Positions 37,517-55,078 of a stretch of DNA of 64,000 bases are shown in pieces. The position numbers were made by a program, and so were the translations under genes. Numbering within the stretch: the first letter of the stretch is position 1; each line of letters opens with the position of its first letter. This DNA is from Hyphococcus sp. (lineage in GTDB: Bacteria; Pseudomonadota; Alphaproteobacteria; Caulobacterales; Parvularculaceae), in contig JAJFGB010000001.1 in the NCBI GenBank assembly GCA_021776335.1, positions 1 through 64,000 on the forward strand. The letters run 5' to 3'. Below the pieces are notes generated by a model. The model was not told where the DNA came from and searched no databases. It saw only the letters and a list, made by a program, of their open reading frames with translations.

Positions 37517-39091
37517 TCACTTTGGCGATGAATCATCGCCGGTCGCGCCATTGCGATCAACGAGATCGATGATATTGGGCGAAAGGCGGATTTTTTTGCG
37601 CAAAGCTTCGCGGCCAACCCGTAAATGTTTTGCCCAAAGGGCGATACTCGATGGGTTTAGCTGGACGACTTTCAGTAATTCATCGTCGGAGATATCGTCT
37701 ATTTTGCGCACTTTGCTGGACTTGGACATAAGCTCGTAGAGCGCTGTGCGCGAGATGTTCAATTTCTTTGCTGCGTCTTTGATGACCCAATCGGCGCCAT
37801 CCAATGCGCCAACAAGTTCTTCATCGCTAATAGTCGTTGCAGCGCGATATTTCGGTTTGCTGATTTTCTGGCCAACCAGTTTTTCTTGATCGGGCGTTGA
37901 GGTGGAGGCATTCAACTTTTCAAAGGCAACGGGCTGCCCGAGAATTATTTTCTGTACCGCGTTGCGCAGCTCACGCACATTGCCGGGCCAGGAATGCAAG
38001 GCCATTCGGTGAATGGCGCTGAGTGATAGCTCGTGGCTGTCTGTTGTCGCGTCGCCATACATGCCTTGCTCAAGGAAGCTTTTGATCAAGAGGCCGATGT
38101 CGATGCGCCGCGTTCGAAGCGGCGGCATGTCAATGGCAAAACTCTCAAGGCGTCTCAAGAGCGGTTGATTAAAGGAGGGTTCGTTTTCTTTGAGGTCCAG
38201 CGACCGGTCCGTCGCAGCGATGATGCGCACATCGATCTTGCGTATTTTATCGTCGCCAACGCGCCGTATTTCACCGGCTTCAAGCGCACGCAATAACATG
38301 GGTTGTACATCGCGGGGCATATCGCCGATTTCATCCATGAATAAGATGCCGCCGTCGGCTTGTTCAAAAAGGCCTTTTTTATCGTGTGATGCGCCGGTAA
38401 AGGCGCCGCGTTTGACGCCAAATAATTCGGCGGCTGCGAGGGATGGGGACAGGGTCGCCATATTGACGGCGAGGAGAGGTTTTTTCGTGCGGTTGCTGGC
38501 CCGATGAATAGCTTGCGCCACCAGTTCTTTACCAGTGCCGGTTTCACCGCGAATAAGCACCGGAATATTGACATCAGCGACACGGCGAATGGCGTCCCGT
38601 GTCAACGCCATGTTCCGGCTAACGCCCGTCAGGCCGTATTCTTCCGGCGCTGTCGTATTTTGTCTGGCTTGTGTGTCGCATATACACAATATGGCGCTGT
38701 TTCCCAGCGCGATGATGATCTCCTCACCAAGCTCATCCAATGCCGCAACCGTTCGTTCTTTGACGATGCGCCCGTTGACGGAAACGCTCATGCTGCTGGC
38801 AGGCGGTGTAAACGCAAATTGCTGCGGCGCCACGCGTTCAATGATGATTGGCGAACGCGAGATATGTTGATCGAGAAGCGTAGTTTCGACGCTGTCGCCG
38901 AGCTTCTTAAATGATGGCGACAAGCGACAAACAGCGGCTTTGCCTGCTTTATCAAAGCGTAATGGCGTAACAGCGCCGATCAATCTGGCATCCTTGTGCC
39001 ACATGACGCCGAGACTCAGTACGCTGGCGTTTGCGATGACATTTCGCGCGCTGGCGCCAAGTGAATCTGCAAGCGTATCAAGTTCACTCAT
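37517..39091 (-). CDS. Sigma-54-dependent activator with FHA-like N-terminus
   Basis: The start at 39091 is the best fit (AAGGA about 11 nt upstream); an in-frame ATG at 39181 would add 30 residues. The product has 524 residues. Residues 1-140 are beta-rich with HISRSPIIIERV and MSVSVNGRIVKERTVAALDE, an FHA-like pattern that would bind phosphothreonine. The AAA+ domain has Walker A GETGTGKE (182-189), GAFTGA (229-234) and Walker B GGILFMDEIGD (247-257), so it should contact sigma-54. Two helix-turn-helix-like segments end the protein (AAKKLNISRTALYELM and LWAKHLRVGREALRKKI). It is divergent from a Ser/Thr kinase, and a sigma-54 promoter lies at 42244. VasH-type activators play this role in T6SS loci. 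Confidence 0.92.
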   Translation of the reverse strand: MSELDTLADSLGASARNVIANASVLSLGVMWHKDARLIGAVTPLRFDKAGKAAVCRLSPSFKKLGDSVETTLLDQHISRSPIIIERVAPQQFAFTPPASSMSVSVNGRIVKERTVAALDELGEEIIIALGNSAILCICDTQARQNTTAPEEYGLTGVSRNMALTRDAIRRVADVNIPVLIRGETGTGKELVAQAIHRASNRTKKPLLAVNMATLSPSLAAAELFGVKRGAFTGASHDKKGLFEQADGGILFMDEIGDMPRDVQPMLLRALEAGEIRRVGDDKIRKIDVRIIAATDRSLDLKENEPSFNQPLLRRLESFAIDMPPLRTRRIDIGLLIKSFLEQGMYGDATTDSHELSLSAIHRMALHSWPGNVRELRNAVQKIILGQPVAFEKLNASTSTPDQEKLVGQKISKPKYRAATTISDEELVGALDGADWVIKDAAKKLNISRTALYELMSKSSKVRKIDDISDDELLKVVQLNPSSIALWAKHLRVGREALRKKIRLSPNIIDLVDRNGATGDDSSPK

Positions 39092-39265
39092 CGGGGCATT
39101 TTCCTTTGAACAAAAAATATTGCGCGTTTTATTTATGGAGAATGGACATTGCTCGACGATGGTCCGCACTATATAGGTCAATAAGGGGTTTGGGGCGGCA
39201 TTGCAAAATGTCTGGTCGTGCGGACGTGACCATTTTTATTTGAGCTGGCAATTGAGCGAGAAACT

Positions 39266-41440
39266 ATGACGGCGCTCGTTGAGCATATCGGCAAGTATTT
39301 GCTGGCCGGTGAGATTGGGGCCGGCGCTCATGGGAAAGTTGTCAAAGCACGCGATACCGTACTGGACCGTATCGTTGCGTTAAAGTCACTGAAATCAAGC
39401 GACACGCCTGAGGCTGACCGCAAGGTAATTTTACGCGAAGCGAAAACTCTAGCGCAGCTTCGACATCCCAATATTGTAACGCTCTATGAGTTGGTGGAGC
39501 AAAATGACGAGACTTATCTCGTTATGGAATATGTTGATGGCGCGCCGCTGTCGGAGCGCTTGAAAGACGGAGCACTGCCGTTGAACGACGCGCTCGCCAT
39601 CGCCGGCGCGTTGATGGATGGGTTATCGCTCGTTCATGGTCATGACATTACCCATGGCGATATCAAACCGGGTAACATTGTTCTCGACAAAACCGATGTG
39701 CCGCGACTGATCGATTTTGGTCTGGCGACAATGTCAGGCCGCGATGATGTGCTGGCGACGGTTTCAGCGGGCGGCGCTACGGTGACGTCGCTGGCGGGGA
39801 CGCTGCCTTATCTCGCGCCCGAAGTGATCATGGGGCAACCGGCTGATGCGCGCGCCGATATTTTTTCTCTGGGCGCCGTTCTTTATGAAATGCTTGCGGG
39901 GCGCCGCGCATTTAGCGCTGACAGCCAGGGCGCCACTTTACAGCGTGTACTGAATGATGAGCCGCCGCCGCTGCGTGATATCCGTCCGGAAATTCCGGTG
40001 GTGGTTGAAGCGCTTGTCGTGCGCATGCTCGAAAAAGACGTAGGCCAGCGGTTTCAGACCATGGCCAGAGCCAGTGCGGCGCTGGCGGCTGCGCGGGGCG
40101 ATAGCAGCTGGGCGGCAGGGCTCAAATTACGGCTGCGGCAAGTCCAGCGCCTGCTGCAGCGCCGTCGCGCAGCGCCGCAATGGGCAAAAATTGTGGTGGC
40201 CGCAGCAGCTTTTGGCGTTATTGCCTGGGCCGGTATGGTTGTCACAAATGATGTAGCGCCGCCAATTAGCGTGCGGATGGAACAGGGGATCGATCTCGTC
40301 CGGCATTTTGAAAAGAAAGACGCCGTCAAAGACGCGCAAGACCTATTCGGGCGCATTCTGTCCGACGATCCTGACCACGCGGCGGCGTCCGCCGGGCTCT
40401 CGCTCGCCTTGATCCGCGAATATACCAGCATGGAAACCGACCCCGCGACCTTGCGCCGGGCGACAGCCTATGCGGAAGCGTCGCTAAAGGCAGACCCGCA
40501 TCTGGCGCTCGCCAATATCGCGGCTGCATGGGCGGCCGAATTCAACAGTGACTTTGTCCGCGCCCATGAACTTTATGATGCTGCGGAAGTTTTGGACACA
40601 GGCAATCCGCTTACGCTTGAAGGCCGTGCGCGTGCGTTAAAGAAACAGGGCGATTATGACGGCGCGATGGCAGTGCTGGAAAAGGCAATTGAAATGCATC
40701 CGGATGAGGCAATATTTTATGGAGGATTGGGAGAGGTCTGTTCACGAAAAGGCGAATATGAAAAGGCCGAACAAGCGTTTCGAAAAAGCATCGCACTCGT
40801 GCCTGACAATCCAATTGCTTATGCCAGCCTCAGTCACGAGCTACACATGCAGGGGAAAACTGCCGAAGCCATTTCCGTTGTGCAGGATGGTCTGAAGATT
40901 GAGAGAAATGCGAAACTCTATAACAATCTTGGCGCTTATTTGTTTTTCCAGGGCCGATACGGACAAGCCGCCCAGGCATTCGAACGGACGCTGGAGCTAG
41001 AAGGCAATACCCATTACTATTTTTATTGGGCAAATCTTGCAGATGCTTATCGTTGGACGCCAGGCAAGGAGTCGGATGCAGCGCTTGCCTATCGCCGCGC
41101 TATCCAATTGCTGCAGAGCGATTTATCCAGACGCCCCAATCATCCAGCGCTGAACAGCCGCAACGCGCTCTATCACGCAAAGCTTGGCGATAAAGAAACG
41201 GCGCGGCGCTCGCTTGATGTGGTGCTCGCCAGAGCAGAACTGCCGCCAATCCAACTATACCGCGCGACCGTAACGTTAGAAATTCTCAACGACCGAACGG
41301 CAGCCCTCGACATGCTCGAGCGCACCATTGATGCCGGCTACGCTTTTAATGAAATCGCCAATGATCCGGAGCTCTCGGTTCTCCGTCAGGACCCGGCCTG
41401 GCAACAACTTCTAGCGCGTAAGGAAATCATCCATGGCTAA
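39266..41440 (+). CDS. Membrane Ser/Thr protein kinase with TPR domain (HGD variant)
   Basis: The protein has 724 residues. The Hanks-type kinase domain (about 8-280) has the glycine loop GEIGAGAHGKV, K40, E58, the catalytic loop HGDIKPGNI (D132, N137) and DFG at 150-152. The usual HRD is HGD, so it is a non-RD kinase that may not need activation-loop phosphorylation. A membrane helix lies near 313-330 (VVVAAAAFGVIAWAGMVV). The C-terminal part has many TPR units (AKLYNNLGAYLFFQGRYGQA). Its phosphorylated products are likely read by the FHA-like domain of the divergent sigma-54 activator. The stop overlaps the next gene by 8 bp. Confidence 0.92.
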   Translation: MTALVEHIGKYLLAGEIGAGAHGKVVKARDTVLDRIVALKSLKSSDTPEADRKVILREAKTLAQLRHPNIVTLYELVEQNDETYLVMEYVDGAPLSERLKDGALPLNDALAIAGALMDGLSLVHGHDITHGDIKPGNIVLDKTDVPRLIDFGLATMSGRDDVLATVSAGGATVTSLAGTLPYLAPEVIMGQPADARADIFSLGAVLYEMLAGRRAFSADSQGATLQRVLNDEPPPLRDIRPEIPVVVEALVVRMLEKDVGQRFQTMARASAALAAARGDSSWAAGLKLRLRQVQRLLQRRRAAPQWAKIVVAAAAFGVIAWAGMVVTNDVAPPISVRMEQGIDLVRHFEKKDAVKDAQDLFGRILSDDPDHAAASAGLSLALIREYTSMETDPATLRRATAYAEASLKADPHLALANIAAAWAAEFNSDFVRAHELYDAAEVLDTGNPLTLEGRARALKKQGDYDGAMAVLEKAIEMHPDEAIFYGGLGEVCSRKGEYEKAEQAFRKSIALVPDNPIAYASLSHELHMQGKTAEAISVVQDGLKIERNAKLYNNLGAYLFFQGRYGQAAQAFERTLELEGNTHYYFYWANLADAYRWTPGKESDAALAYRRAIQLLQSDLSRRPNHPALNSRNALYHAKLGDKETARRSLDVVLARAELPPIQLYRATVTLEILNDRTAALDMLERTIDAGYAFNEIANDPELSVLRQDPAWQQLLARKEIIHG

Positions 41441-41966
41441 TCAAAAATATACCCTCGATCTGATGTTCGATGTGGATCAGGTGACGAAAGCCCTGCATTA
41501 TCATTTTAATGGGCCAAAGGGCTCTCCTTTTCACGGACAAGGGCGTCTTGCGGGCACCTTTAATTTCGACGTCGGTGATGAGGTGCATGTGAGAGTGATC
41601 GCAACGGCGGCAAAAAAAGACTTGGACAAGGTGCAATTTGCCATCACTGACCTGACGCTCGCGTCGATCCCAACTTTACAGCCTGAAAAATATTATTTGT
41701 CGCTTTTTGATCGGCACCGGGCCTGTGTGCAGGTTCGCGATTGGGGCATCCCCAAGCGTGCTAAAAAAGAAAATAACACGCTGATCACGATCAAGGCACT
41801 GCACCCCTTGCGGGTATACGCGCCTAATGGCCAATGGGAATTGTCTGGCTATTTGTCGGTTCTGATCGAAAGACCCGACAAGCATGGCAAGCTGAAAAAG
41901 TTCTCGCGTCTGTTTTATTTTGACCCCGAGAGTAGCTCGGGAACTGGCGGAGACATTGAGGATTAG
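41433..41966 (+). CDS. Unknown protein coupled to the kinase gene
   Basis: The protein has 177 residues with no signal peptide. It is beta-rich: YTLDLMFDVDQVTKALHYHF, RLAGTFNFDVGDEVHVRVIA and SRLFYFDPESSSGTG at the acidic C-terminus. I do not recognise the family; a jelly-roll or inclusion-body-like protein is possible. The start overlaps the kinase stop by 8 bp, so the two are translationally coupled and the protein may be a kinase substrate or partner. The operon across the gap, starting at 42298, is separated by a new promoter. Confidence 0.75.
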   Translation: MANQKYTLDLMFDVDQVTKALHYHFNGPKGSPFHGQGRLAGTFNFDVGDEVHVRVIATAAKKDLDKVQFAITDLTLASIPTLQPEKYYLSLFDRHRACVQVRDWGIPKRAKKENNTLITIKALHPLRVYAPNGQWELSGYLSVLIERPDKHGKLKKFSRLFYFDPESSSGTGGDIED

Positions 41967-42045: not shown

Positions 42046-42086
42046 TGTCGGACGTGTCGCAGTGTCGGCGTCCGGCACGTCCGACA
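42046..42086. promoter_or_regulatory. Candidate upstream activating sequence (11-bp inverted repeat)
   Basis: TGTCGGACGTG (42046-42056) and its exact complement CACGTCCGACA (42076-42086) are separated by 19 bases that contain a further GTGTCGG. The element is about 190 bp upstream of the sigma-54 promoter at 42244, the usual distance for an enhancer of a sigma-54 activator. It lies in the gap 41967-42297, which contains no gene. It could instead act as a transcription terminator for the 41433 gene, but no T run follows. Confidence 0.55.
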
Positions 42087-42243: not shown

Positions 42244-42259
42244 TGGCACGCGCCCTGCA
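42244..42259 (+). promoter_or_regulatory. Sigma-54 (RpoN) promoter
   Basis: TGGCACGCGCCCTGCA matches the -24/-12 consensus TGGCACG-N4-TTGCW except for one base, with the invariant GG (42245-42246) and GC (42257-42258) spaced by exactly 10. It is intergenic, reads toward the gene at 42298 and would start transcription near 42270. The encoded sigma-54 activator (37517-39091) and the upstream inverted repeat complete the expected control circuit. Confidence 0.75.
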
Positions 42260-42297
42260 AAGCAGATCTCCACGAGACGCGATTGGAGAGCAACGCA

Positions 42298-42486
42298 ATG
42301 GTTCTGCTTACGGACGATATAATCCAACAGACGAGAGACGGGACAACCTCTCTCTATTCTCATGCAGGATTAAACGCTTGCGGCGCTCCATCGCCTGGCG
42401 CCTTTCCCGGCACATTACGCGTCTTTGCAAAGCTGCGAAATGCAGAAAACCACTATTCACCAACCAAAGGAACGTACAATGACTGA
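42298..42486 (+). CDS. Small 62-residue protein, first gene of the sigma-54 operon
   Basis: The ATG at 42298 has GGAGAG 7 nt upstream and lies about 28 bases after the predicted sigma-54 start site. The product is MVLLTDDIIQQTRDGTTSLY, then SHAGLNACGAPSPGAFPGTL and so on. The stop (42484-42486) overlaps the next start by 8 bp, as expected for coupled genes. It has one cysteine and a Gly/Pro-rich middle. It is unrecognised; a small structural or leader peptide is possible. I cannot exclude that it is a chance frame in the 5' leader. Confidence 0.5.
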   Translation: MVLLTDDIIQQTRDGTTSLYSHAGLNACGAPSPGAFPGTLRVFAKLRNAENHYSPTKGTYND

Positions 42487-43015
42487 TACATTCGAGGCGC
42501 AATTGAAGGCGTTCGGCCTGCCGGATTCATCAAAAATCGCACAAGTCGTGGAATTCGGTGATGATGAAATTGTCACCATTGGCGACGATACATCTGGTTG
42601 TCCGTTTACGGTCAAAACCTTGACGACAAAATCGCTCGATCAAATGAAAGAATGGATCGGGAACTCCGATGAGACCGTGGCGCAAGAGGGGATCGAACTT
42701 GTTAGTGCATCGGACATAAAAAATCTCCACCCCAACGCTCCCGAAGATCTCGCTGCCGCGGCGCGCCAATATGTTTATGGGCGCAGTGCCGATGTCGCGC
42801 ATTTGAAAGAGAGCATCGAAGACATTCTTGGTCCGTTTGAGCTTCAAGTTTTATCTGGAGGCAAAATTATCATCAAAGCGGGACAAACGCTTAAATATGA
42901 GGGCACGAAACCCAAGAAGGTATTGGCCCAAGAGCTCGTCTTTGAAGGTCCCGGCGCAAACATCGAATCCTTCGTGAACCTCACAATGAAAATCACTTCG
43001 GTCGAAGTGAAATAA
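42479..43015 (+). CDS. Unknown protein of the glycine-rich/LamG operon
   Basis: The ATG at 42479 has AAAGGAA 6 nt upstream; a longer frame opens at 42425 without a ribosome binding site. The 178-residue protein has no signal peptide. The last 60 residues read like a beta-solenoid (LQVLSGGKIIIKAGQTLKYE, LVFEGPGANIESFVNLTMKI), a type of stacked strand seen in right-handed beta helices. The N-terminal half is alpha/beta and unrecognised. It begins the run of tightly spaced genes and ends 17 bp before the first glycine-rich gene. Confidence 0.75.
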   Translation: MTDTFEAQLKAFGLPDSSKIAQVVEFGDDEIVTIGDDTSGCPFTVKTLTTKSLDQMKEWIGNSDETVAQEGIELVSASDIKNLHPNAPEDLAAAARQYVYGRSADVAHLKESIEDILGPFELQVLSGGKIIIKAGQTLKYEGTKPKKVLAQELVFEGPGANIESFVNLTMKITSVEVK

Positions 43016-43032
43016 TAATAGGGATACTGAAC

Positions 43033-43665
43033 ATGACAAATGCTGCACCGAAAAAACAGATGAATATTGGCGGATCACCTGGTCCAAACTCGCCGCCGTC
43101 CGGCGCGGGCGGAGCAGGGGGCACAGGGTCTGGCGGCCACGCCCAGGTAACCGATTGGGCAGGGAGTGTGACAAAAAAAGCCGCGAACGGCGGCACTGGC
43201 GGCCCAGGAAAACCGGGAATACCAGGGCAGTCCGGCGGCGACGGATCAGCCGCCAGCGACACAACCCTCGATCTCGGCGCAATTATCGGGACTCTTGAAT
43301 TGGTTGTGGGCGGCGGCCCAGGCGGTTCTGGCGGCGCAGGCGGTCCCGGCGGCGCCGGCGGCGTGGGCGGTCCTAAGAACGGTGGCCCCCGTCAAGGCGA
43401 TGGCGGTCCGGGCGGCCCGGGCGGCCCCGGCGGCGCCGGCGGCAATGGCGGCGATGGATCGACTGTGATCATCACAACCACGACCCCGCAATCTGTCAGC
43501 GCGGTCACTAATCAATCTGTTGGCGGTCCTGGCGGCGCCGCTGGCGCCGGTGGCAGAGGCGGCGCCGGAAACAAAGTCGGCGCAACCGGACCGGGCGGCA
43601 CTGCTGGCGCGCCTGGCGCGCCCGGCAGCAAAGGAAAGATTACAATAAAAACGCCGGGCCATTGA
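43033..43665 (+). CDS. Glycine-rich collagen/polyglycine-like protein 1
   Basis: The protein has 210 residues, roughly half of them glycine, without a signal peptide. An N-terminal GxPG-type block (GGTGGPGKPGIPGQSGGDG) is followed by a beta segment (TTLDLGAIIGTLELVVGGG), a long GG-x-GG run (GGPGGAGGVGG, GGPGGPGGPGGAGG), a second beta segment (STVIITTTTPQSVSAVTNQS) and more GGxGG repeats, ending GSKGKITIKTPGH. GGxGG runs can form polyglycine-II helix bundles as in phage S16 tail adhesins. It is paralogous to the next gene, so an assembled surface fibre is inferred. Confidence 0.85.
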   Translation: MTNAAPKKQMNIGGSPGPNSPPSGAGGAGGTGSGGHAQVTDWAGSVTKKAANGGTGGPGKPGIPGQSGGDGSAASDTTLDLGAIIGTLELVVGGGPGGSGGAGGPGGAGGVGGPKNGGPRQGDGGPGGPGGPGGAGGNGGDGSTVIITTTTPQSVSAVTNQSVGGPGGAAGAGGRGGAGNKVGATGPGGTAGAPGAPGSKGKITIKTPGH

Positions 43666-43706: not shown

Positions 43707-44363
43707 ATGCCATCCGTACGAGGACAAAACGACTACAATATCAACATTACCGGCAAACCGGGCGACCCGGGAAATGATGGTCCGTCGGGGCCACCCGGGC
43801 CAGCGGGCGCCGATGGATATGTCGACAAAAAGGACTGGAACACCAAGGTCGATATGCCTCCGGGAGGGGGCCATGACGGCAAGCCCGGAAAACCGGGAAA
43901 TGCCGGTACGCCAGGCATGCCTTCCCGGGATGCAACCTTGAATTTTGGCGATATCCAAGGCGCCTTCTCACTACGCGTTAGTGGCGGCGCCGGTGGGACT
44001 GGCGGCGCCGGCGGTTCTGGCGGCGACGGCGGCGTCGGCGGCAATGCGCTAAACACCGCGACAGGAAAGGCGGCGATCGGCGGCAAGGGCGGCAATGGCG
44101 GAAACGCAGCGGTCGGCGGCAATGGCGGGCCTGGCGGCGCCGGCTCCACGGTAACGCTGCACATTCCAAAAGCTGCAGACTTTACCGGGCTGCCTTCAAC
44201 CAGCATCGGCGGCGCGGGAGGTCAAGGTGGCGCCGGCGGCGCGGGCGGCGGCGGCGGTTCTGGCGACCCGGCCGGCGCCCCTGGATCAGCAGGTAGCGGC
44301 GCAAAAGCAGGCGCGCCTGGAAGACCAGGATCCAAGAGCACCATTACCGTTATTCGACAATAG
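43707..44363 (+). CDS. Glycine-rich collagen/polyglycine-like protein 2
   Basis: The ATG at 43707 follows GGAG by 6 nt; a TTG at 43662 overlaps the previous gene but adds an unlikely N-terminus. The 218-residue protein has the same order of parts as protein 1: GKPGDPGNDGPSGPPGPAG, then ATLNFGDIQGAFSLRVSGGA, a GGxGG run, STVTLHIPKAADFTGL, a second GGxGG run and a C-terminal GAPGRPGSKSTITVIRQ. GPPGPAG triplets make this one more collagen-like. No signal peptide is present. It is probably co-assembled with protein 1. Confidence 0.85.
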   Translation: MPSVRGQNDYNINITGKPGDPGNDGPSGPPGPAGADGYVDKKDWNTKVDMPPGGGHDGKPGKPGNAGTPGMPSRDATLNFGDIQGAFSLRVSGGAGGTGGAGGSGGDGGVGGNALNTATGKAAIGGKGGNGGNAAVGGNGGPGGAGSTVTLHIPKAADFTGLPSTSIGGAGGQGGAGGAGGGGGSGDPAGAPGSAGSGAKAGAPGRPGSKSTITVIRQ

Positions 44364-47400: not shown

Positions 47401-47784
47401 TTGGCAAAAACCAAGCCCGCAGGCGCCGGCTTTAAAACCTATATCGACACCGTGCAAAATGGCGTCATTGGCGTGTGGGGCGTCATCCATGTGCTGCTCT
47501 TCATTGCGTTACTTATCTGGGAGACAATAGAAAATTCGAAAGACCCAACTAAGAGCGCTTCCGAGAAAATATGGGATGAAGCGGATATCGGCGCCAAGGG
47601 CGGCAGTAACATCGCCAGCACAATTCCGGAAATCGTCGGCTTTGCACGGTATGGCATGGCGAATCCAGAGGTGAAGGCCGCCGTCGTCGCCGCGGATTTC
47701 GCCGCGATGGTTGTCGTGCCGCTTGTCACGACCGGGCGTACAATTGGAGCGATTGTGAGACATGCAACAATTTCTCCTCGATAA
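44434..47784 (+). CDS. Large LamG-domain protein with hydrophobic C-terminus
   Basis: The ATG at 44434 has GGAGG 6-7 nt upstream; a longer frame opens at 44227 inside the previous gene. The product has 1,116 residues and no signal peptide. Residues 1-200 are a LamG/concanavalin-like domain (FTIEAWVRTKTGGPVAAQMG, GDVDEVRLWNTALETWQID). The middle (480-820) has amphipathic helices (VVISYVEDGITKFFDFVVAT, GVALQKVIDYLSALFNVADI) and a long low-complexity helical part. From about residue 820 to the end there are five or six hydrophobic helices (LPIVGAQFLAQIASYPIYMS, WGVIHVLLFIALLIWETI). A lectin-guided membrane-inserting protein is inferred; the exact family is not recognised. Confidence 0.8.
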   Translation: MTDKTAFSISFDGSTAYAQAPGVAAYDFGVGDFTIEAWVRTKTGGPVAAQMGADTKTGAGWGLFVLDDGRVQLTTFDNGSTMIATTKAPPATFDGSWHHLAGVRVGLDMMILFDGVPQLLSIDINGAPPIDVSGNLPLTIGATALIGSQTKRQYFAGDVDEVRLWNTALETWQIDQNIYHIVTINRKNLVAQYGFDKKTGIDTSGKGNDLTFHGSVLFADPAFYFVPEGQPFMAVQVRLMEDYHYDKKTPSKKPTPVKAIRVALSPRKSNGQKRAASLTLTTDIDTSIYAAGAQYPIGPKTPVTLKTNADNQLNTSIFLDSDSLVAPVLKVHADFMGQDERIVVPLDRQIHYDLSKVTGPALQDPADPLLAPADFSPTQAQAVADTVSNVMSAAVQHDMQPSDPVIRSKGAPISVKALSTRRAINRNVTTGRPERENYLPVEMENPLLVPTSDLLRCHYMAQNAAVERVVIPTFMDTPHFKFDVKNKTFTPVTQLEAEAEASRRRLSSNFTSISAPKMADGEILTKALSAASLWDKFVSGLLDVTDWLVSIGKSILDGIRVVISYVEDGITKFFDFVVATVTEAAEFVVGMFRAIGVALQKVIDYLSALFNVADILRTHRVVYKFMQETGQFGLACVTDLKSSADAMFDNAKSSVDTYFDDAIAKFGKSSVTDQSQSSTLDQPASLQSDYVNQHVAETDMAQPFTISNVPPQAKMDTSIAAITAGSGPNLDTLISDNQAGITDFIDSAETSLDEALATILELLKASLDMAIDLAKAVVDAVLDMLIAGYQMVLDMIDSRINIPIITWFYEEVICAGDGSKLTILNLLALAGALPVTVLSKLFHGEAPFTEAFEKKFQTMSWQDYGFYHLPSNLFGAAAQENYRPRVNDVLDTAQPGWVMPLSWAQGFVFSASVAVWFGGVMASDTANVSVLENGFNTWLMLPIVGAQFLAQIASYPIYMSYNAGTPPSLEVSIWALQWLPFAMDVVDLVLAKTKPAGAGFKTYIDTVQNGVIGVWGVIHVLLFIALLIWETIENSKDPTKSASEKIWDEADIGAKGGSNIASTIPEIVGFARYGMANPEVKAAVVAADFAAMVVVPLVTTGRTIGAIVRHATISPR

Positions 47785-48826
47785 CAAAGCAACCTCTGTT
47801 TGCGGCGCTGCTTCGTATATCGAATCATCACGCATCTTTGCTCGAACAGCTGAGACATGGGCGGGCGGCGATAATGGCCAGGTGGTCACTCTCTTAAACG
47901 ACCACTTGGCGCCGTGTGTGGGCGGCTGCGAAGAAGATAGGGCAGCGCGCTCTGGATTAAACTACGATGAAACGCCGCTACAACTATGCTTAGCCTTGCG
48001 GCCGTCAGGATATAAATGGCGTGCGCTTATTGATCCAGGCGTTGCCATTTGTGCGCCGAGCACCCGATTTAGCGAATCAAAACGGATATTGGAACGGTCT
48101 CTTCGACAGGCAGGCGCCGCCGCGTTCCAGAGTGATTTTGATCAGCTGATTGCACTTCAGGGACCAAATAATGAGCTTTCGGTCACGGCGTTTGACTATG
48201 GCGTATTTTGGATTGGCGCTGAGATTAACGGTCGCGGACGATCAATCTATATTGACGCTAGCGTCGGCGCGCCCGATGCCTATTGGGCGCGAGCATTAAA
48301 GACACTCCTGTCGCTTTCTGCATCCGCCGGCGAAATCACGCGCATCGTCAATATACTCTCTGATCACACTATACCGATGTCGGTGGGAATGGAGGTGCGC
48401 GGGCATAGCCGTCGGTTGAAGGTGCATACCCGCCTGGTTCGCCGCCCGCCGCCCCATATTATGGGCCAGATAATGCCCATGCTATCCGATCCCGACGTTG
48501 CCGCTGCTGTTGCTGTTCTCATGGAAAATGGGAATGCGCTCAGCCTGCATGGGTTTGTTCTTGAGGCGGCATTTGACGCTGAAACCGGAATACTTTGCGA
48601 TGCTAAAATCGATATCGCCGCGCCAGAAGTTTGTCACCAAAGATGTTGGTTGAAACGTGTTCAAAGAGTTGCTGAAATTCTCGGCGTCACGTGGCCTGAA
48701 GAAATAACAGAACGAATATCTGGCAGTTCGCGTCTCGCTTATATCGGGATTGGGAAAGACACAAATGCGCAATCAAGGCTAAATCTGTATTTCACGCCAG
48801 GCACATCTTATGCACGACATTTATGA
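47762..48826 (+). CDS. Unknown 354-residue protein, possibly ABBA-type prenyltransferase-like
   Basis: The gene overlaps the LamG gene by 23 bp and the next gene by 17 bp, so it is part of the operon. No signal peptide is present. I see an alpha/beta pattern with basic strand-like segments (SRRLKVHTRLVRRPP) and a C-terminal pair GSSRLAYIGIGKDTNAQSRL and NLYFTPG. Short basic strands of this kind occur in ABBA-fold aromatic prenyltransferases, and the next gene is terpene-cyclase-like. This likeness is weak and from memory; treat it as a hypothesis only. Confidence 0.6.
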   Translation: MQQFLLDNKATSVCGAASYIESSRIFARTAETWAGGDNGQVVTLLNDHLAPCVGGCEEDRAARSGLNYDETPLQLCLALRPSGYKWRALIDPGVAICAPSTRFSESKRILERSLRQAGAAAFQSDFDQLIALQGPNNELSVTAFDYGVFWIGAEINGRGRSIYIDASVGAPDAYWARALKTLLSLSASAGEITRIVNILSDHTIPMSVGMEVRGHSRRLKVHTRLVRRPPPHIMGQIMPMLSDPDVAAAVAVLMENGNALSLHGFVLEAAFDAETGILCDAKIDIAAPEVCHQRCWLKRVQRVAEILGVTWPEEITERISGSSRLAYIGIGKDTNAQSRLNLYFTPGTSYARHL

Positions 48827-49775
48827 AAATCTAGGACGCGCATGCCGCGCCCTCCAAAACGCGATGACGCCGGCACAATGTTGGAAAGATTATATGTTGC
48901 CGGTTGGCGAGTCGGATGAATGGGTGACGGCATTTGTTGGCGTTGCCCTCGCTGAAGCGGGCGCCGCGTTGGGAAAAGGAGAATTTATTGAAACGGCTGA
49001 AACCGCTTTTTCCGCGTTAATCGATAATCGATCCCGGTCGGCTGGATTTGGTTTTAACGCTTTCGTTGAAGCTGATGCCGACAGTACAGCAACCGTCCTC
49101 TTGCTTGCGTCATTGCTCAAGCAAAGCGTTCCTGCCGACGACATTGCATTTTTGCAAAGCCATCAGCGAAATGACGGTGGTTTTGCAACATTTCAGGAAG
49201 AAAATGGTTGGGGCCAGTCACATGCGTGCGTAACGCCGGTCGCTGCATTGGCGTTGTTGCGTTTCGGCGCTGATGTGCCAATGGGTCAATTATCTCGCTA
49301 TGGTGATGATATTCGAAACATCGATGGAACATGGCCGGCATATTGGTGGCCGGGGCCATTATACGCCACGGCAGCCTGGTTGCGGCTCGCTCAGGATGCG
49401 CCGCAGCTCAGTATGACTGGTTCAAAGCAACTCACTTCCATCAGTATTCCGACACTGATGGATTTGGCGTTGGCGGTTGAAATAGCGTATCGGTTGCAGC
49501 AACCGAAAAGAAAAGAACTGTTAGATAAGCTAATCGAAAACCAGCAACCTTCAGGATTGTGGCCGGCCAGCAAGTGTCTCCGGGTAACCGATGAAAATTG
49601 CAAAGACCACGATAGTGCCCATGGCGAAATCTATGCCGATCACAATTGCCTTATGACAACCGCGATGGCTGTAAGATCAATCGCCTATATTGTTGGCTCA
49701 AATGAACTTTGTGCGGATGCGGCTTGCACACCCAATCACGTTTCAGCCGGCTGGCGGCAAATCGACGCCTATTGA
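48810..49775 (+). CDS. Alpha/alpha-barrel terpene-cyclase-like protein
   Basis: The protein has 321 residues. It has the repeats of the prenyltransferase/squalene-oxidase superfamily: FLQSHQRNDGGFATF, YGDDIRNIDGTWPAYWWPGP and IENQQPSGLWPASKCLRV. The sequence DADSTA (89-94) resembles the DxDDTA acid motif of class II terpene cyclases, with the central proton-donor Asp kept and the last Asp changed to Ser. It is about half the length of squalene-hopene cyclases, so it has one barrel. Both terpenoid chemistry and a non-catalytic binding role are possible. It is the last gene of the sigma-54 operon. Confidence 0.75.
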   Translation: MHDIYENLGRACRALQNAMTPAQCWKDYMLPVGESDEWVTAFVGVALAEAGAALGKGEFIETAETAFSALIDNRSRSAGFGFNAFVEADADSTATVLLLASLLKQSVPADDIAFLQSHQRNDGGFATFQEENGWGQSHACVTPVAALALLRFGADVPMGQLSRYGDDIRNIDGTWPAYWWPGPLYATAAWLRLAQDAPQLSMTGSKQLTSISIPTLMDLALAVEIAYRLQQPKRKELLDKLIENQQPSGLWPASKCLRVTDENCKDHDSAHGEIYADHNCLMTTAMAVRSIAYIVGSNELCADAACTPNHVSAGWRQIDAY

Positions 49776-50211: not shown

Positions 50212-51321
50212 ATGCTTCCGACACTCAAATTATTGAGGCGCGCTGATGATGGCGACGCGCTGGTGGAACGGCCGTTCGATAAAGAACTGTTAACCGTCGG
50301 CCGCGGCAGTGACCGCGATATCTGCATTGATGATCCGTCACGGGTTGTATCCAAAAACCATTGTGAAATTTTTCGCCGCGGCAATGCGATCTTGCTGCGT
50401 GACACGAGCTTTAATGGCGTTTGCATTAATGATTCGGACGACCGTATTCCGCGCGGGGATACGGTCTTGATCGCGAGCGGCGATCGCCTGTCAATTGGCG
50501 ATTTTATATTGCAGGTCGGCGCTCAAAACGAGAATTCGCCGGGCAAAAAGGGCGTGGCAGGCGGCAATGAAAATGCTGATCGATTTGAGGCGCCATTGCT
50601 GTCGGACGAGCCGGCGCATGATCAAACGATCACAGTGCCGACGGATTGGGATGGCGCCGCCTCTGGTGATAAGTCGGGAAAAAAGACAAAGCCGAAAACA
50701 TCGACGCCGCAATCTTCGAAAGTTTCCGATGAGAAACTATTGGAGGCGTTCTTTGACGGTGCAGAGCTTGATTCGGCCGCCCTGAAAGATGATGACCCTG
50801 AAAAGATTCTGTATGCCGTTGGTGTGATCTACAAACAGACGGTACTTAGTCTGTCCGACATCTTGAACGACAGACAATATTTAAAAAATGAGTTCAACCT
50901 TGAGCGGACGATGATGGGGGCGCACAATAACAGCCCGCTGAAATTCTCGGGTGCTCAAGCGGCGGCAATTGCTCTTTTACAGACGCCAAAAGACGGCTTC
51001 CTCGGCGGGCAGGATGCTATTCAGGAAGCCGGCCGCGATATCAAGAAGCATCAACTCGCGTTGATCGCGGCCATGCGTGAAACCATGAAATCGATGGCCG
51101 ACGCGCTCGACCCTTCGCCGATCCTGGCGCAAGTGAAAGAAAATAAAGCAGGCAAATCAGCAAAAGAGGGTGCGGCGCAAATCGCCGAGGCCTGGAACGA
51201 GTATGAGCGTCAATATGGGGAGATCATGGAGGGCGCTTCGACAGATCGAAACAGCAATTTAAACAAGCAGTTTAGAAAAGCATACGAAACTCATATGGCG
51301 ATGCTCGACAGTTTGTTGTGA
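50212..51321 (+). CDS. TagH-like type VI-associated FHA protein
   Basis: The protein has 369 residues. The N-terminal FHA domain (1-100) has LTVGRGSDRDICIDDPSRVV, SKNHCEIFRR and LLRDTSFNGVCIND, the phosphothreonine-binding loops. After a charged linker, the C-terminal domain (about 175-369) reads LLEAFFDGAELDSAAL, NEFNLERTMMGAHNNSPLKF and KKHQLALIAAMRETMKSMAD, the T6SS FHA C-terminal (TagH) domain. In Pseudomonas aeruginosa the TagH/Fha protein is the phospho-target of the kinase PpkA and triggers T6SS assembly. Here the kinase and phosphatase are adjacent but the secretion apparatus is not. Confidence 0.88.
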   Translation: MLPTLKLLRRADDGDALVERPFDKELLTVGRGSDRDICIDDPSRVVSKNHCEIFRRGNAILLRDTSFNGVCINDSDDRIPRGDTVLIASGDRLSIGDFILQVGAQNENSPGKKGVAGGNENADRFEAPLLSDEPAHDQTITVPTDWDGAASGDKSGKKTKPKTSTPQSSKVSDEKLLEAFFDGAELDSAALKDDDPEKILYAVGVIYKQTVLSLSDILNDRQYLKNEFNLERTMMGAHNNSPLKFSGAQAAAIALLQTPKDGFLGGQDAIQEAGRDIKKHQLALIAAMRETMKSMADALDPSPILAQVKENKAGKSAKEGAAQIAEAWNEYERQYGEIMEGASTDRNSNLNKQFRKAYETHMAMLDSLL

Positions 51322-51420: not shown

Positions 51421-52212
51421 ATGACGGACATTGAGGCCAAACGCCAAATGCCGCGCGCGCTTCGTCCGCAAGCCTCTTTCCGTTCAGTTGCGCGCACACA
51501 TGCAGGCGCGGTCCGCAGCGCCAACGAAGATGCCTATGCGCTAAGGGATGATCTGGGTCTCTGGGCAATTGCCGACGGTGTTGGCGGGCATGACTCAGGC
51601 GAAGTCGCGAGCAACTTGCTGGCTGAAGAAATGCGGGCGATTTGTGCGGCGCCCGGTATCGGCGGATTGCGCGAGCAGGTCGAAAATGCAATTCGCCGCG
51701 CACACATCACAATGACCAAAAATACCGTGGATGGCGCCCGAAAGACCATGGGGAGCACCATCTCGGCGCTATTGGGCGGGAAAAATTGCATTGAGTGTAT
51801 TTGGGCCGGCGACAGCCGCATTTATCGCCATCGCGATGATTGCCTGACGCGGCTCACCCATGATCACAGCATTGTTCAGCGGATGATAGACGAAGGCTCT
51901 TTGGATGAAGAGGGCGCGCGGCGCCATCCGCAAAGAAATATGATCACGAGGGCCGTTGGCATCCAACAGGAGTTGCAATTGGATGTTCGGTCCGTAGAGC
52001 ACAGCAGCGGTGACAAATATTTGTTATGTACGGACGGGCTCTACGACATGTTGACGGACGCCGAGCTGTGCAACGTCATTTCGTGCGGATCAATTGACGA
52101 AACAGCAGATTTGTTGCTGGCAACGGCACTGGCGCGGGGCGCCAGCGATAATGTCACGCTTGTTCTGGTTGAAGCAGTTGCTGATAGCGAGACCTATTGC
52201 AATGGCAAATAG
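51421..52212 (+). CDS. PP2C-type Ser/Thr protein phosphatase
   Basis: The protein has 263 residues. The metal-binding motifs are all present: RSANEDAYAL, WAIADGVGGHDSGE, WAGDSRIYRH, LCTDGLYDML and GASDNVTLVLVE. It removes phosphate from Ser/Thr, here most likely from the FHA protein or substrates of the two kinases. It is the counterpart of PppA/Stp1 in T6SS phosphorylation pathways. It lies 99 bp after the FHA gene and its end overlaps the LysM gene. Confidence 0.94.
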   Translation: MTDIEAKRQMPRALRPQASFRSVARTHAGAVRSANEDAYALRDDLGLWAIADGVGGHDSGEVASNLLAEEMRAICAAPGIGGLREQVENAIRRAHITMTKNTVDGARKTMGSTISALLGGKNCIECIWAGDSRIYRHRDDCLTRLTHDHSIVQRMIDEGSLDEEGARRHPQRNMITRAVGIQQELQLDVRSVEHSSGDKYLLCTDGLYDMLTDAELCNVISCGSIDETADLLLATALARGASDNVTLVLVEAVADSETYCNGK

Positions 52213-53113
52213 TGAAAACACATACCGCTCCGCTGTGCGCCGTCATGGCTTTGGGCAAACTCGCGGCCGGCGCCTTCGAACGTGGGCGCTCATTATGGTG
52301 TCGCCCATCATTGTGTCATGCGTATCGTATCGGGGTGATAGCCAAAGCGCGAATAATGGCAGCGTGATTGAAATCTGTAAGCCCGACGCCAAGGTTAGGG
52401 TGCGGGACCGGCTAGACAATGCAATTGCCCTGTTGAGCCGCAATGATTTCTGTCACGCCCGCGCTGAGATCGTTGATTATATCGGTCACAATCATCGCAG
52501 CGGCGCCGCCATAACCCTGTTATTCGCGACAGAGACGGATCCGCAGGCATATTGGGGTGAGGAATCATTCGAATACACAGTGAAGCGCGGGGACTCTCTT
52601 ACCGTTCTTTCCGAACGATATCTGGGTGATATGCTGCTTTTTCCCATGCTCGGGCGGTACAATGAGGTAAGCGCGAACGGGTTGCGGGCACAGTCGCGTA
52701 TCCGGATCCCCAATGGGCCGAAGGCGACATCACAAATGTGCGTCGCGGCGCCAAAAACTGTCGAGCTGGTCCCGCCCACGGATAAAGAGATCCGAAAAGC
52801 ATCACAGCTGGTCGCCAAAGGCGACGAACTCAATACTGCCGGTGATTATGTTGGCGCCTATGATGCTTATGCTGAGGCGACAACAATCAACGGGCAGTCA
52901 ATAGATGCCCATATGCGTTTGTTTGAAGTGTCGGGAACGGCCGCTGATGTTTATCACCGAAAGGCCATTCAGGCGATCCTGGATCAAAAGCCTCAACAGG
53001 CAATCACACATTGGAACCGAGTGCTGGAGATAATCCCGAGCCACCCGCACGCGCCCACAGGGCTTCGTCGCGCTCAGGATATTGTCAGCAAGATCGCGAA
53101 GCTTGAGCAATAG
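52202..53113 (+). CDS. LysM-TPR lipoprotein
   Basis: The ATG at 52202 overlaps the PP2C gene by 11 bp; a longer frame at 52094 lies wholly inside that gene. The 303-residue protein has a long n-region, a hydrophobic core and lipobox IVSC (about residue 40), so it is probably lipidated. A LysM-like segment near 120-165 (FEYTVKRGDSLTVLSERYLG) would contact peptidoglycan. The C-terminal part has TPR units (LNTAGDYVGAYDAYAEATTI). It probably senses or anchors the module at the cell wall. Confidence 0.85.
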   Translation: MANSENTYRSAVRRHGFGQTRGRRLRTWALIMVSPIIVSCVSYRGDSQSANNGSVIEICKPDAKVRVRDRLDNAIALLSRNDFCHARAEIVDYIGHNHRSGAAITLLFATETDPQAYWGEESFEYTVKRGDSLTVLSERYLGDMLLFPMLGRYNEVSANGLRAQSRIRIPNGPKATSQMCVAAPKTVELVPPTDKEIRKASQLVAKGDELNTAGDYVGAYDAYAEATTINGQSIDAHMRLFEVSGTAADVYHRKAIQAILDQKPQQAITHWNRVLEIIPSHPHAPTGLRRAQDIVSKIAKLEQ

Positions 53114-53200
53114 GGCGCGCCAGGATTTGCAGGAGGGGTGCGCCGATCAGCCGGTGTATCCATTCCAGTAATCTGCTTCAACAATTAGCCATGACAGAAT

Positions 53201-55078
53201 TTAGCTGGCAGCCCGGCGCGGGGTTTTGCCATTTGCCTTTTTGGCCACCGGTTTGTTTGCTCTCTTCGAGGATGCCGATCCGCTCGGTGTTTTGTCTTCG
53301 ACCGCGGATACACAGGCAGTATCGTCTGCATCTTTAATGTTGGGGTGCGCAGGCGAGGGGCCAAGAGGTTCAGATGCATCTGGTTCAGACGCAAAAGGCA
53401 ACGTGGCGCTGGCATCCTTGACACCTGCCGCTGACGCAGAGATTTGCGTGTCAGTTTCCGCAAAAATTGCCGTCTCGCTGATGTCCGGGCGAACATCGGG
53501 AACATGCTGCGGGCGGATCGCAACGATCTGCTCGGCGAGGGCGTTAAATGCATCATATAATTCGCCCACCTGATCGTTTCGCTTATGCGATATTCTCTCC
53601 GTCAGGCTGCCCATGGAAAGCCCCTTCAGGGCGGCCTGAACCTTTAGAATTGGATTTGAGACAACACCGATGAGGAAATAGGCTGAACACGAAACCAGAA
53701 CGATCGTGATGAGTGCAACGATGGAAAGCATGTAGAGAGAGATTGTCAGGGCGCTTTCCAGATTGCTTCTTGAAAGACCAAGTTCAATTGTGCCAACCCG
53801 TGTCTCTGCGTACTCAATTGGCGCTACAAACTTGAAGATGCTTTGATTATCGAATTCGTCTTCATGAACGACATTCATGCGATCATCGTCTGGGCCAAAC
53901 GATGGCAGCGTGGAAAGCGGCAGGCCGACCCACCCACTGGCGTTAGAGGCGATGATGGCGCCGTCTCGGTCAGCCACATGAAGATAAACGAATGATTGTT
54001 CCTGGGTAATCGACTTAATGGTGACGTCTATGCGTCCAATGTCGCCCGTAACGATGGGCTCGGCGATTTCAGAAGCCGCCAGTTTTGTCATGGAGGCGCC
54101 GGCGTCGATGGCGAGATCCGTCAAAACTTCCGATTGGTGACCGTGGAGATAAAGGCCAAAAGTAATTGTCACCGCAGCTGCAAGCAGCGCCATATTCGCG
54201 GTTAGTCTGTTGCGGATGGATCTTGGCGATCTTTCACGCGCCGTGCGTTCAAATTCCGCGAGCGCCTGCATTTGTTCGAGGAGGTCCGCCTTAAGCGCCG
54301 CGCCGGATTGATATCTCTTTTCAGGTTCCCGCGTGAGCAGTTTTTGAATGATCGATTGAACCCCTTGGGGCACATTGGCGCAAAAATCCTTGATCGGCCT
54401 TGGTTTTGATTGCGTGATATCGACCATCAATTGCCCGATTGTCGCCGCTTGAAACGGTTTTTCGCCGGTCACCATCAGGTAAAGAACGGCGCCCAGCGAA
54501 AACAGGTCAGACCGGCCGTCAACGGGCAAACCAATCACCTGCTCGGGGCTCATATATTGGGGTGTGCCAAGCATGGCGCCCGCACGCGTGTCTTCAAGAT
54601 CGTCGCTGCTGTCGAGGCGTGCGATGCCGAAATCAGCAATCTTGACCGTCTCGCTGTTTTTCAGGACCAGGAGATTGGACGGCTTGATGTCGCGATGGAC
54701 CACGCCGACAGAATGCGCGTAGTCAAGCGCGTCAGCAATTTGCGCGCCGATCGACAAAGTTGCGCGCAGTGAAAAAGGCCCGCTTTGCGCAATCACATCA
54801 TCCAGCGGGTCGCCGTCAACATATTCCATAATGATATATGGATTGGCGTCGCTCTGTCCGACATCATAGATCGTGACAATATTGGGATGAGAAAGGACGC
54901 CGGCGGCTTTCGATTCCTGAAGGAAGCGGGCGACATATTCCTGATCGGCTAAATGTTTTTGCTTTAGCCGTTTTATCGCCAATGTGCGTTTGATTTCGGG
55001 ATCGAACGCCAGGAAGACGTCAGCGGCGGCGCCGCTGCCAAGCTGCTGCTTAATCTGGTATCGGCCGACCTGCTTCAC
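53201..55078 (-). CDS. Transmembrane Ser/Thr protein kinase with periplasmic sensor and HAMP
   Basis: The protein has 625 residues. The kinase domain (about 7-265) has the loop LGSGAAADVF, K36, HRDIKPSN (128-135) and DFG (149-151). A first membrane helix (about 293-312) leads to a periplasmic sensor region, then a second helix (TISLYMLSIVALITIVLVSC) and a HAMP domain (VVSNPILKVQAALKGLSMGS). The tail is rich in Ala, Pro and Lys. It is convergent with the LysM gene and separated by 87 bp. In T6SS loci the analogous PpkA also carries a periplasmic sensor; a role as input of the FHA/PP2C module is inferred. Confidence 0.92.
   Translation of the reverse strand: MKQVGRYQIKQQLGSGAAADVFLAFDPEIKRTLAIKRLKQKHLADQEYVARFLQESKAAGVLSHPNIVTIYDVGQSDANPYIIMEYVDGDPLDDVIAQSGPFSLRATLSIGAQIADALDYAHSVGVVHRDIKPSNLLVLKNSETVKIADFGIARLDSSDDLEDTRAGAMLGTPQYMSPEQVIGLPVDGRSDLFSLGAVLYLMVTGEKPFQAATIGQLMVDITQSKPRPIKDFCANVPQGVQSIIQKLLTREPEKRYQSGAALKADLLEQMQALAEFERTARERSPRSIRNRLTANMALLAAAVTITFGLYLHGHQSEVLTDLAIDAGASMTKLAASEIAEPIVTGDIGRIDVTIKSITQEQSFVYLHVADRDGAIIASNASGWVGLPLSTLPSFGPDDDRMNVVHEDEFDNQSIFKFVAPIEYAETRVGTIELGLSRSNLESALTISLYMLSIVALITIVLVSCSAYFLIGVVSNPILKVQAALKGLSMGSLTERISHKRNDQVGELYDAFNALAEQIVAIRPQHVPDVRPDISETAIFAETDTQISASAAGVKDASATLPFASEPDASEPLGPSPAHPNIKDADDTACVSAVEDKTPSGSASSKRANKPVAKKANGKTPRRAAS

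What the first reader, a model, noticed from the sequence alone, without database searches (positions are those of the whole stretch)
37517..55078. Phospho-regulated sigma-54 locus that joins T6SS-type control genes to glycine-rich and LamG proteins
Seen: a sigma-54 activator, two Ser/Thr kinases, a TagH-type FHA protein, a PP2C phosphatase and a LysM lipoprotein flank an operon of two glycine-rich proteins, a LamG protein and a cyclase-like protein. Known: kinase-FHA-PP2C sets plus VasH-like activators control type VI secretion. Here no TssB, TssC, TssK, Hcp, VgrG or ClpV gene is visible between the control genes. Inference: the control module has been recruited to another surface or secretion system made of the operon proteins, none of which has a signal peptide.
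Basis: partly seen in the sequence, partly recalled or inferred. Interest (0 to 1): 0.9.

Follow-up and report, generated by a model that had tools for sequence, protein, structure and literature searches.

The report
Kinase-controlled operon with exchangeable cargo
A set of signalling genes normally seen beside a bacterial injection weapon sits here in a genome in which none of three core parts of that weapon was found, next to an operon with its own predicted switch, whose contents are quite different in the one related genome found to carry the same set.

Summary
The genes at 37517-55078 are real, including a true TagH-type FHA protein (205.5 bits; cut-off 120.25). One of those 28 (a Marinicaulis MAG) carries the same control genes at 50-73% identity but other cargo, with a patatin phospholipase. 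Before each cargo operon lies a sigma-54-type -24/-12 site, the best of each stretch scanned, and an inverted repeat, TGTCSGACRTG...CAYGTCSGACA, seen once per genome at the spacings tested. The quartet TagH/PP2C/LysM/HAMP-kinase recurs in three TssC-less and TssM-less genomes of a second family, in genome G642 and on a Sphingobium megaplasmid (TssC untested in the last two). Best reading: an envelope-sensing phospho-relay detached from the T6SS, beside a dedicated sigma-54 switch for exchangeable, possibly toxin-like cargo. That the operon builds a surface or secretion machine is not supported. Unshown: that the quartet signals to the activator (main rival: two separate modules), and what the cargo does. 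New variant of a known kind.

The parts
37517..39091 (-). sigma-54 activator: about 160-aa N-terminal domain of unknown fold, AAA+ with GETGTGKE and GAFTGA, HTH_8
   Evidence: 67% identical in G017; start at ATG 39091 inferred (ORF runs to 39181)
39266..41440 (+). Ser/Thr kinase (HGDIKP, DFG) with one transmembrane-like segment and TPR repeats, divergent from the activator
   Evidence: 71% identical in G017
41433..41966 (+). 177-aa beta-rich protein ('p3'); weak fold match to PixA and to a MakC/MakD entry; two copies in G017
   Evidence: no significant Pfam match
42046..42086 (.). inverted repeat TGTCGGACGTG-N19-CACGTCCGACA, proposed activator-binding site
   Evidence: counterpart at G017:C59:23563-23591
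42244..42259 (+). sigma-54-type -24/-12 site TGGCACGCGCCCTGCA, best score in the 64-kb window
   Evidence: counterpart TGGCACGCTCCTTGCG at L013:3490-3505 -
42298..42486 (+). 62-aa small ORF overlapping the start of the next gene (possible)
42479..43015 (+). cargo 1, unknown protein ('p4')
   Evidence: only a weak BslB hydrophobin match, E 0.038
43033..43665 (+). cargo 2, glycine-rich protein (35% Gly)
43707..44363 (+). cargo 3, glycine-rich protein (30% Gly over the ORF from 43662; ATG start inferred)
44434..47784 (+). cargo 4, LamG-like domain + middle part + C-terminal hydrophobic segments
47762..48826 (+). cargo 5, unknown 354-aa protein ('p8'), matched in 1 of 60 genomes searched (its own)
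48810..49775 (+). cargo 6, possible alpha-alpha-toroid (prenyltransferase/cyclase-like) protein, weak
50212..51321 (+). TagH-type FHA protein
51421..52212 (+). PP2C phosphatase
52202..53113 (+). LysM/TPR protein, lipoprotein-like by reading
53201..55078 (-). Ser/Thr kinase (HRDIKP, DFG) with HAMP; the part between is probably a periplasmic sensor (inferred)
   Evidence: its f44 homologue has a cache match

Best explanation
A T6SS-independent threonine-phosphorylation relay that drives one dedicated sigma-54 operon of exchangeable cargo. Shown here by sequence: (1) the TagH-type FHA protein, PP2C, LysM/TPR protein and HAMP-kinase form a recurrent quartet, also in genomes without TssC; (2) a sigma-54 activator with ATPase and GAFTGA motifs, divergent from a TPR-kinase, lies beside an operon preceded by a -24/-12 site and an inverted repeat found at one place in the genome; (3) this control part is kept at 50-73% identity in a second genome while the operon behind it is replaced. 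Inferred: the LysM protein and the outer part of the HAMP-kinase sense cell-wall state; the kinases phosphorylate targets read by TagH's FHA domain and reset by PP2C; this releases the activator, which binds the inverted repeat and opens the sigma-54 promoter; the cargo is a burst-expressed effector or toxin-like set. Its route out of the cell, if any, is unknown; lysis or another system is possible.
For: No TssC, TssL or TssM; TssC 0 of 28 in the genus. Control genes conserved in G017 (activator 67%, TPR-kinase 71%, TagH 60%, PP2C 66%, LysM 50%, HAMP-kinase 73%) with no cargo homologue in its 36 kb fetched. Both blocks lie within about 18 kb in both genomes although their order differs. The best sigma-54-type sites of the 64-kb window and of the 18-kb G017 stretch lie in the gap before the cargo, on its strand; these gaps are 0.4% and 0.5% of the positions scanned. 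Full inverted repeat at one place in each genome, there. Quartet in three f44 genomes without TssC/TssM, in G642 and on a Sphingobium plasmid. Catalytic motifs present. LamG family: differing N-termini, hydrophobic C-terminal part. p3 fold matches include PixA and a MakC/MakD entry; MakC/MakD are cytosolic accessories of a tripartite-toxin operon (PMC11484084 abstract).
Confidence: 0.47

Rival explanations
1. Two separate modules that happen to be neighbours: the TagH/PP2C/LysM/HAMP-kinase quartet is an envelope relay of its own, and the sigma-54 activator, TPR-kinase, p3 and cargo are an independent inducible unit.
For: Quartet without an activator homologue in the stretches fetched of f44, G642 and Sphingobium; PP2C, HAMP-kinase and LysM without recognised TagH in G740 and G745; blocks separated by six genes in G017, where the TagH block sits between two genes that are neighbours in the window, as if it moves as a unit.
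Against: Both blocks are close together in both genomes that have them despite a changed order; TagH over cut-off is in only 2 of 28 genus genomes, these two.
Confidence: 0.33
2. The operon builds a surface structure or non-T6SS secretion apparatus.
For: Collagen-like glycine-rich proteins (PF01391 E 0.0016, below cut-off) and a LamG domain; weak match of p4 to the surface hydrophobin BslB (E 0.038); hydrophobic C-terminal part of the LamG protein.
Against: Operon replaced behind a like promoter in G017; no translocase, pilin or channel family match; no N-terminal hydrophobic segment in the cargo by a simple scan.
Confidence: 0.12
3. A relic: regulatory leftovers of a T6SS lost from the lineage.
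For: TagH belongs to the T6SS family; TssL remains beside TagH in f44; the PP2C also matches one T6SS stretch well (L054, 43% over 240 residues).
Against: Kinase, phosphatase, FHA and activator motifs present; the same LysM and full-length HAMP-kinase partners recur and were not matched in the T6SS stretches compared; promoter and inverted repeat kept with other cargo.
Confidence: 0.04
4. A phage-like or other contractile injection system elsewhere in the genome delivers the cargo under this control.
Against: PixA-type chains rank higher; no tail gene seen in the operon.
Confidence: 0.04

Closest known systems
Threonine phosphorylation pathway of the T6SS (PpkA-Fha-PppA, with TagQRST in Pseudomonas aeruginosa)
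   Same: Ser/Thr kinase, FHA protein with T6SS C-terminal domain, PP2C phosphatase, envelope input (PMC10482370 passages)
   Different: No TssC, TssL or TssM in the genome; LysM/TPR protein and HAMP-type kinase; beside a non-T6SS operon
VasH-RpoN control of T6SS genes
   Same: sigma-54 activator controlling a gene cluster (PMC10482370 passages)
   Different: Here the predicted target is one operon of non-T6SS genes with its own inverted repeat
Vibrio cholerae TagH acting on hemolysin HlyA
   Same: A TagH protein with an output other than the T6SS (PMC8993066 abstract)
   Different: There the T6SS is present and TagH represses; here none of the three core parts searched was found and the sign is unknown
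Mak operon (MakC/MakD accessories, MakABE toxin)
   Same: Small cytosolic beta-rich proteins encoded beside larger, possibly membrane-active ones (PMC11484084 abstract)
   Different: Only a weak fold likeness of p3; likeness of the cargo to MakA, MakB or MakE was not tested directly
Stand-alone TagH quartets of f44, G642 and Sphingobium sp. TomTYG65
   Same: Homologous TagH, PP2C, LysM and HAMP-kinase, no other T6SS gene matched near by except TssL in f44
   Different: f44 keeps TssL beside TagH; no sigma-54 activator homologue or like cargo in the stretches fetched

Membership tests
Type VI secretion system | Sheath protein TssC in the genome | tested here: not met
   PF05943: 0 matches, E. 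coli control rings; 0 of 28 in the genus
Type VI secretion system | Membrane complex TssL and TssM in the genome | tested here: not met
   PF09850 and PF06761: 0 in G000 and G017; present in T6SS-bearing G381 and G124
Type VI secretion system | TssB, TssK, Hcp, VgrG, ClpV genome-wide | not tested
TagH (TIGR03354) | Score over curated cut-off | tested here: met
   205.5 bits, cut-off 120.25
TagH (TIGR03354) | FHA phosphopeptide-binding signature (GR, SxxH, NG; recalled) | tested here: met
   GR30-31, S47-K-N-H50, N68-G69; G30, S47, H50, N68 and G69 are invariant in 9 aligned TagH, R31 is not
PpkA-Fha-PppA relay | Kinase, FHA protein and PP2C encoded together with catalytic motifs | tested here: met
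PpkA-Fha-PppA relay | Kinase phosphorylates FHA or TssL protein and PP2C reverses it | not testable with these tools
   needs biochemistry
sigma-54 activators (bEBP) | AAA+ with Walker motifs and GAFTGA, HTH | tested here: met
sigma-54 activators with FHA input domain | N-terminal FHA domain | tested here: inconclusive
   no Pfam FHA match, profile comparison negative, model pLDDT 33
PixA/AidA inclusion-body family (PF12306) | Pfam match | tested here: not met
   PF12306 not among matches at E up to 10 for the 3 p3 proteins; HMMER's filters drop most matches above 0.1
PixA/AidA inclusion-body family (PF12306) | Fold | tested here: inconclusive
Pore-forming toxins | Membrane permeabilisation | not testable with these tools
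   only hydrophobic C-terminal segments seen

The most novel reading that the evidence does not exclude
The TagH-PP2C-LysM-HAMP-kinase quartet is a general, T6SS-independent cell-wall-stress relay of Pseudomonadota, from which the T6SS relay was drawn or which was drawn from it, and in Marinicaulis it is wired to a plug-in sigma-54 cassette: one activator, one operator-promoter and a cargo slot into which different toxin-like operons are swapped.
Probability: 0.35. Interest if true: 0.75.

Novelty: new variant of a known kind. Interest (0 to 1): 0.62.

Why it matters
TagH genes are commonly read as a sign of a T6SS (recalled); here 4 of the 18 class genomes with a TagH over the cut-off (3 of 17 without the own genome) lack TssC. 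A module found apart from the weapon lets one ask what TagH, kinase and phosphatase do by themselves, which is hard where they are tied to an injection machine. The swap of cargo behind a kept promoter would be a natural plug-in system, and gives a short list of unknown proteins (LamG family, p3, the 416-aa protein) worth testing.

Tried and rejected
Complete T6SS elsewhere in the genome: rejected for TssC, TssL and TssM only. Wide recurrence of the whole locus: not found; p8 in 1 of 60 genomes, its own; p3 in 1 of 385 class genomes, its own, and 1 further locus in a pattern-based scan of GTDB genomes, the Marinicaulis MAG. Plasmid searches with p8, p3, the G017 416-aa protein, p4 and the activator N-terminus: no match. 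Cyclase-like protein: 2 plasmid records, neither with other cargo homologues. G017 patatin: the nearest plasmid match (54%) has no other G017 cargo homologue beside it, in Burkholderia cenocepacia. LamG relatives: the Undibacterium, Stanieria and Kovacikia pB stretches hold no other window cargo (p8 also compared; the Kovacikia pA stretch was not compared); a 25-residue match (E 0.002, one-locus database) between the G017 126-aa protein and the gene after the Undibacterium LamG gene is unexplained. TagH plasmid search: 57 records, 25 shown, one (Sphingobium) followed up. FHA domain on the activator: not shown. Foldseek for p3: no E <= 0.001. PADLOC (10 proteins given): both kinases match PD-T4-6 and other kinase models, PP2C matches PDC-M21C (50.2 bits), the cargo given nothing. 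PHROGs at E <= 0.001: only the LamG protein, three families over residues 8-200 and one tape-measure family over 514-747. PDB sequence searches: none for p3 (E <= 1), the activator N-terminus (E <= 10) or the 416-aa protein (E <= 1); one weak match (E 0.073) for the LamG alignment. sigma-70-type and terminator scans: at chance. My first reading missed genes because of a greedy ORF choice: in G642 I saw only LysM and in G627 nothing. One search, with all ORFs, shows the quartet in G642 and a kinase, PP2C, LysM and a short FHA-like match in G627. This adds a stand-alone quartet, so I lowered the best explanation from 0.50 to 0.47 and raised the two-module rival from 0.30 to 0.33. TagH trees: G411's third copy and below-cut-off proteins were left out of all three; G357 (branch 5.0) was dropped from the second and third, Sphingobium added in the second and G642 in the third. 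One clade of quartet TagH was neither shown nor rejected (p-AU 0.554, 0.475, 0.451), and T6SS-bearing G381 falls among them. One search hid rows of L001-L004, L009, L017 and L018 (own genome or G017). Literature: the listings showed no paper on a T6SS-less TagH module; the library holds open-licence papers only.
Full report
WHAT IS THERE. The window is contig 1, bases 1-64000, of a 4,178,611-base genome in 11 contigs, 99.53% complete. Open frames match the finding. Family matches: sigma-54 activator (195.5 bits), TPR-kinase (Pkinase 177.9), TagH (TIGR03354 205.5 bits, cut-off 120.25), PP2C (47.5), HAMP-kinase (187) and LamG domain (66.4). LysM (17.6 bits) and the cyclase likeness (E about 0.02) fall below their cut-offs. 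p3, p4 and p8 have no significant family; p4 has a weak BslB hydrophobin match (E 0.038). Motifs of both kinases, the phosphatase, the FHA domain and the AAA+ activator (GETGTGKE, GAFTGA) are present (motif meanings recalled).

NO T6SS CORE. TssC (PF05943): 0 matches in the own genome and 0 of 28 in the genus, 17 of them at least 90% complete with at most 5% contamination. TssL/DotU: 0 in G000 and G017. TssM (PF06761): 0 in G000, G017 and three f44 genomes. T6SS-bearing G381 and G124 ring for both TssL and TssM. TagH: one gene in the own genome. Proteins of three 20-kb T6SS stretches (L051, L052, L054) match in the whole window only the TagH and PP2C genes; as a control the L051 and L054 proteins match 12 ORFs of L052, some of them overlapping. 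TssB, TssK, Hcp, VgrG and ClpV were not searched genome-wide.

THE SAME CONTROL GENES WITH OTHER CARGO. Over the cut-off, TagH is in 2 of 28 genus genomes, the own and G017; 6 of 28 have some match at E <= 0.001, the other four below the cut-off. G017 encodes the activator (67% identity), TPR-kinase (71%), p3 (64%, plus a second copy at 33%), TagH (60%), PP2C (66%), LysM protein (50%) and HAMP-kinase (73%). Behind p3 it has, instead of the window's six cargo genes, a 416-aa protein, a 126-aa protein and a patatin (82.8 bits). No window cargo gene has a homologue (E <= 1e-3) in the 36 kb of G017 fetched, and p8 none in its whole genome; the other cargo genes were not searched in its whole genome. 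Six ordinary genes (VOC-like, WYL/HTH-like and LytTR-like by reading; DUF3108 below cut-off; TPR by reading; DUF1579) lie left of the activator in both genomes, at 70-90% identity. The TagH block lies right of the cargo in the window; in G017 it sits left of these six, between two genes (77% and 82% identical) that are neighbours at 32076-33050 in the window. So the two blocks have changed order yet lie within about 18 kb in both. p8 was matched in 1 of 60 genomes, its own; p3 in 1 of 385 class genomes, its own; the pattern-based GTDB scan added only the Marinicaulis MAG.

THE SWITCH. With a weight table for -24/-12 sites written from memory, the best score in both strands of the 64-kb window is TGGCACGCGCCCTGCA at 42244-42259, and the best in the 18-kb G017 stretch L013 is TGGCACGCTCCTTGCG at 3490-3505, each in the gap before the cargo and on its strand. 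A score as high arises somewhere in 76 of 200 simulated 64-kb sequences, but in 5 of 200 for L013; the gaps are 0.4% and 0.5% of the positions scanned. Plain pattern counts do not exceed chance, so position and conservation carry the argument. Upstream lies an inverted repeat, TGTCGGACGTG-N19-CACGTCCGACA in the window and TGTCCGACATG-N7-CATGTCGGACA in G017. The half-site with up to one mismatch is found 9 times in the window (expected 3.7; 1 of 100 shuffles as high) and 3 times in L013 (17 of 200 shuffles as high), exact only at these repeats. The relaxed pattern TGTCNGACN{6,34}GTCNGACA occurs at two places in each genome, 0 for the reversed control pattern. The second place lacks the full half-sites in each genome; the one in G000 reads as repeat-rich coding sequence, the one in G017 was not examined. 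So, at these spacings, each genome has one full site, before the cargo.

THE QUARTET ELSEWHERE. Of 385 class genomes, 18 have TagH over the cut-off. Of these, 14 have TssC and 4 do not: the own genome and G098, G225, G397, all of family f44 (which examined 21 genomes: these 18, G017 without TssC, and two below-cut-off genomes with TssC). The f44 loci hold PP2C, a TssL-like DotU, TagH, a LysM/TPR protein and a HAMP-kinase, with a TPR lipoprotein and a deacetylase (L048 by Pfam; L049 and L050 by BLAST and reading; DotU in all three). The window's HAMP-kinase aligns to theirs over 530-611 residues at 37-41%. In the T6SS stretches held (20 kb for four genomes, short loci for the rest) the HAMP-kinase matches only by its kinase domain and the LysM protein not at all, but the PP2C matches T6SS-bearing G189 (L054) as well as the f44 ones (43% over 240 residues). 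On Sphingobium sp. TomTYG65 plasmid pTomTYG65a, LysM, HAMP-kinase, TagH and PP2C stand in one run after an EAL gene. Of 398 phylum genomes, 5 matched the LysM alignment including the own. G642, same class, has PP2C, TagH (31% over 324), HAMP-kinase (39% over 540) and LysM in one run, L066:5985-10368. G627, another class, has HAMP-kinase, PP2C, LysM and a short FHA-like match. G740 and G745, another class, have PP2C, HAMP-kinase, LysM, deacetylase and TPR lipoprotein beside ATP-synthase genes (by reading) without a TagH match in 20 kb. No activator homologue lies in the stretches of f44, G642, G627, G740, G745 or Sphingobium. The T6SS proteins compared match in these stretches only TagH or FHA, PP2C and, in f44, DotU and one antisense ORF. 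TssC was not searched in G642, G627, G740, G745 or Sphingobium. TagH trees place the quartet proteins near each other, with T6SS-bearing G381 among them; a single clade is neither shown nor rejected.

HOW IT PROBABLY WORKS. Known: in T6SS bacteria the kinase PpkA phosphorylates Fha or TssL, PppA reverses Fha phosphorylation, and VasH with sigma-54 drives T6SS genes (PMC10482370, passages). V. cholerae TagH also controls a hemolysin, with a key role for its phosphopeptide-binding sites (PMC8993066, abstract). Here the same kinds of parts stand without the three machine parts tested. I infer: the LysM protein and outer kinase region sense the wall; TagH and PP2C shape the phospho-signal; the activator, perhaps through the divergent TPR-kinase, turns on one sigma-54 operon. 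The step from quartet to activator is the weakest; two independent modules side by side is the main rival, and became a little stronger with G642.

VERDICT. A real, recurrent control module without the T6SS core parts tested, linked in two genomes to a dedicated sigma-54 switch with exchanged cargo. New variant of a known kind.

Noticed in passing
L048, L049, L050 (G098, G225, G397): TssL/DotU-like protein beside TagH in genomes without TssC and TssM: a T6SS membrane part kept apart from the machine.
   Followed up: partly
L066:5985-10368 (G642): PP2C, TagH, HAMP-kinase and LysM in one run, TagH nearest to that of Sphingobium; TssC not searched in this genome.
   Followed up: partly
L065:6669-11008 (G627): HAMP-kinase, PP2C, LysM and a short FHA-like match in a genome of another class.
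   Followed up: partly
L063:4188-10763 and L064:9333-15293: PP2C, HAMP-kinase, polysaccharide deacetylase, TPR lipoprotein and LysM protein next to ATP-synthase genes (by reading) in two genomes of another class, without recognised TagH.
   Followed up: partly
L011, L012, L015, L016: Large proteins on Undibacterium and cyanobacterial plasmids share the C-terminal half of the LamG protein; N-termini differ.
   Followed up: partly
window 42298-42486: A 62-aa ORF with a purine-rich leader overlaps the start of the first cargo gene.
   Followed up: partly
L013:3613-4134 and 4209-4751: G017 has two p3-type genes (one diverged, 33% to the window's) directly before its cargo.
   Followed up: partly
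L073:8001-9011: A patatin on a 3.2-Mb Burkholderia cenocepacia replicon is 54% identical to the G017 cargo patatin; the other plasmid matches shown are at 30-35%.
   Followed up: partly
window 32076-33050 and G017 contig C59: Two genes that are neighbours here flank the TagH block in G017, so the block sits at different places in the two genomes; the sites in other genus members were not examined.
   Followed up: partly
window 55908-59708: By reading, PHA-synthase-like and phasin-like genes follow the locus; not scanned.
   Followed up: no
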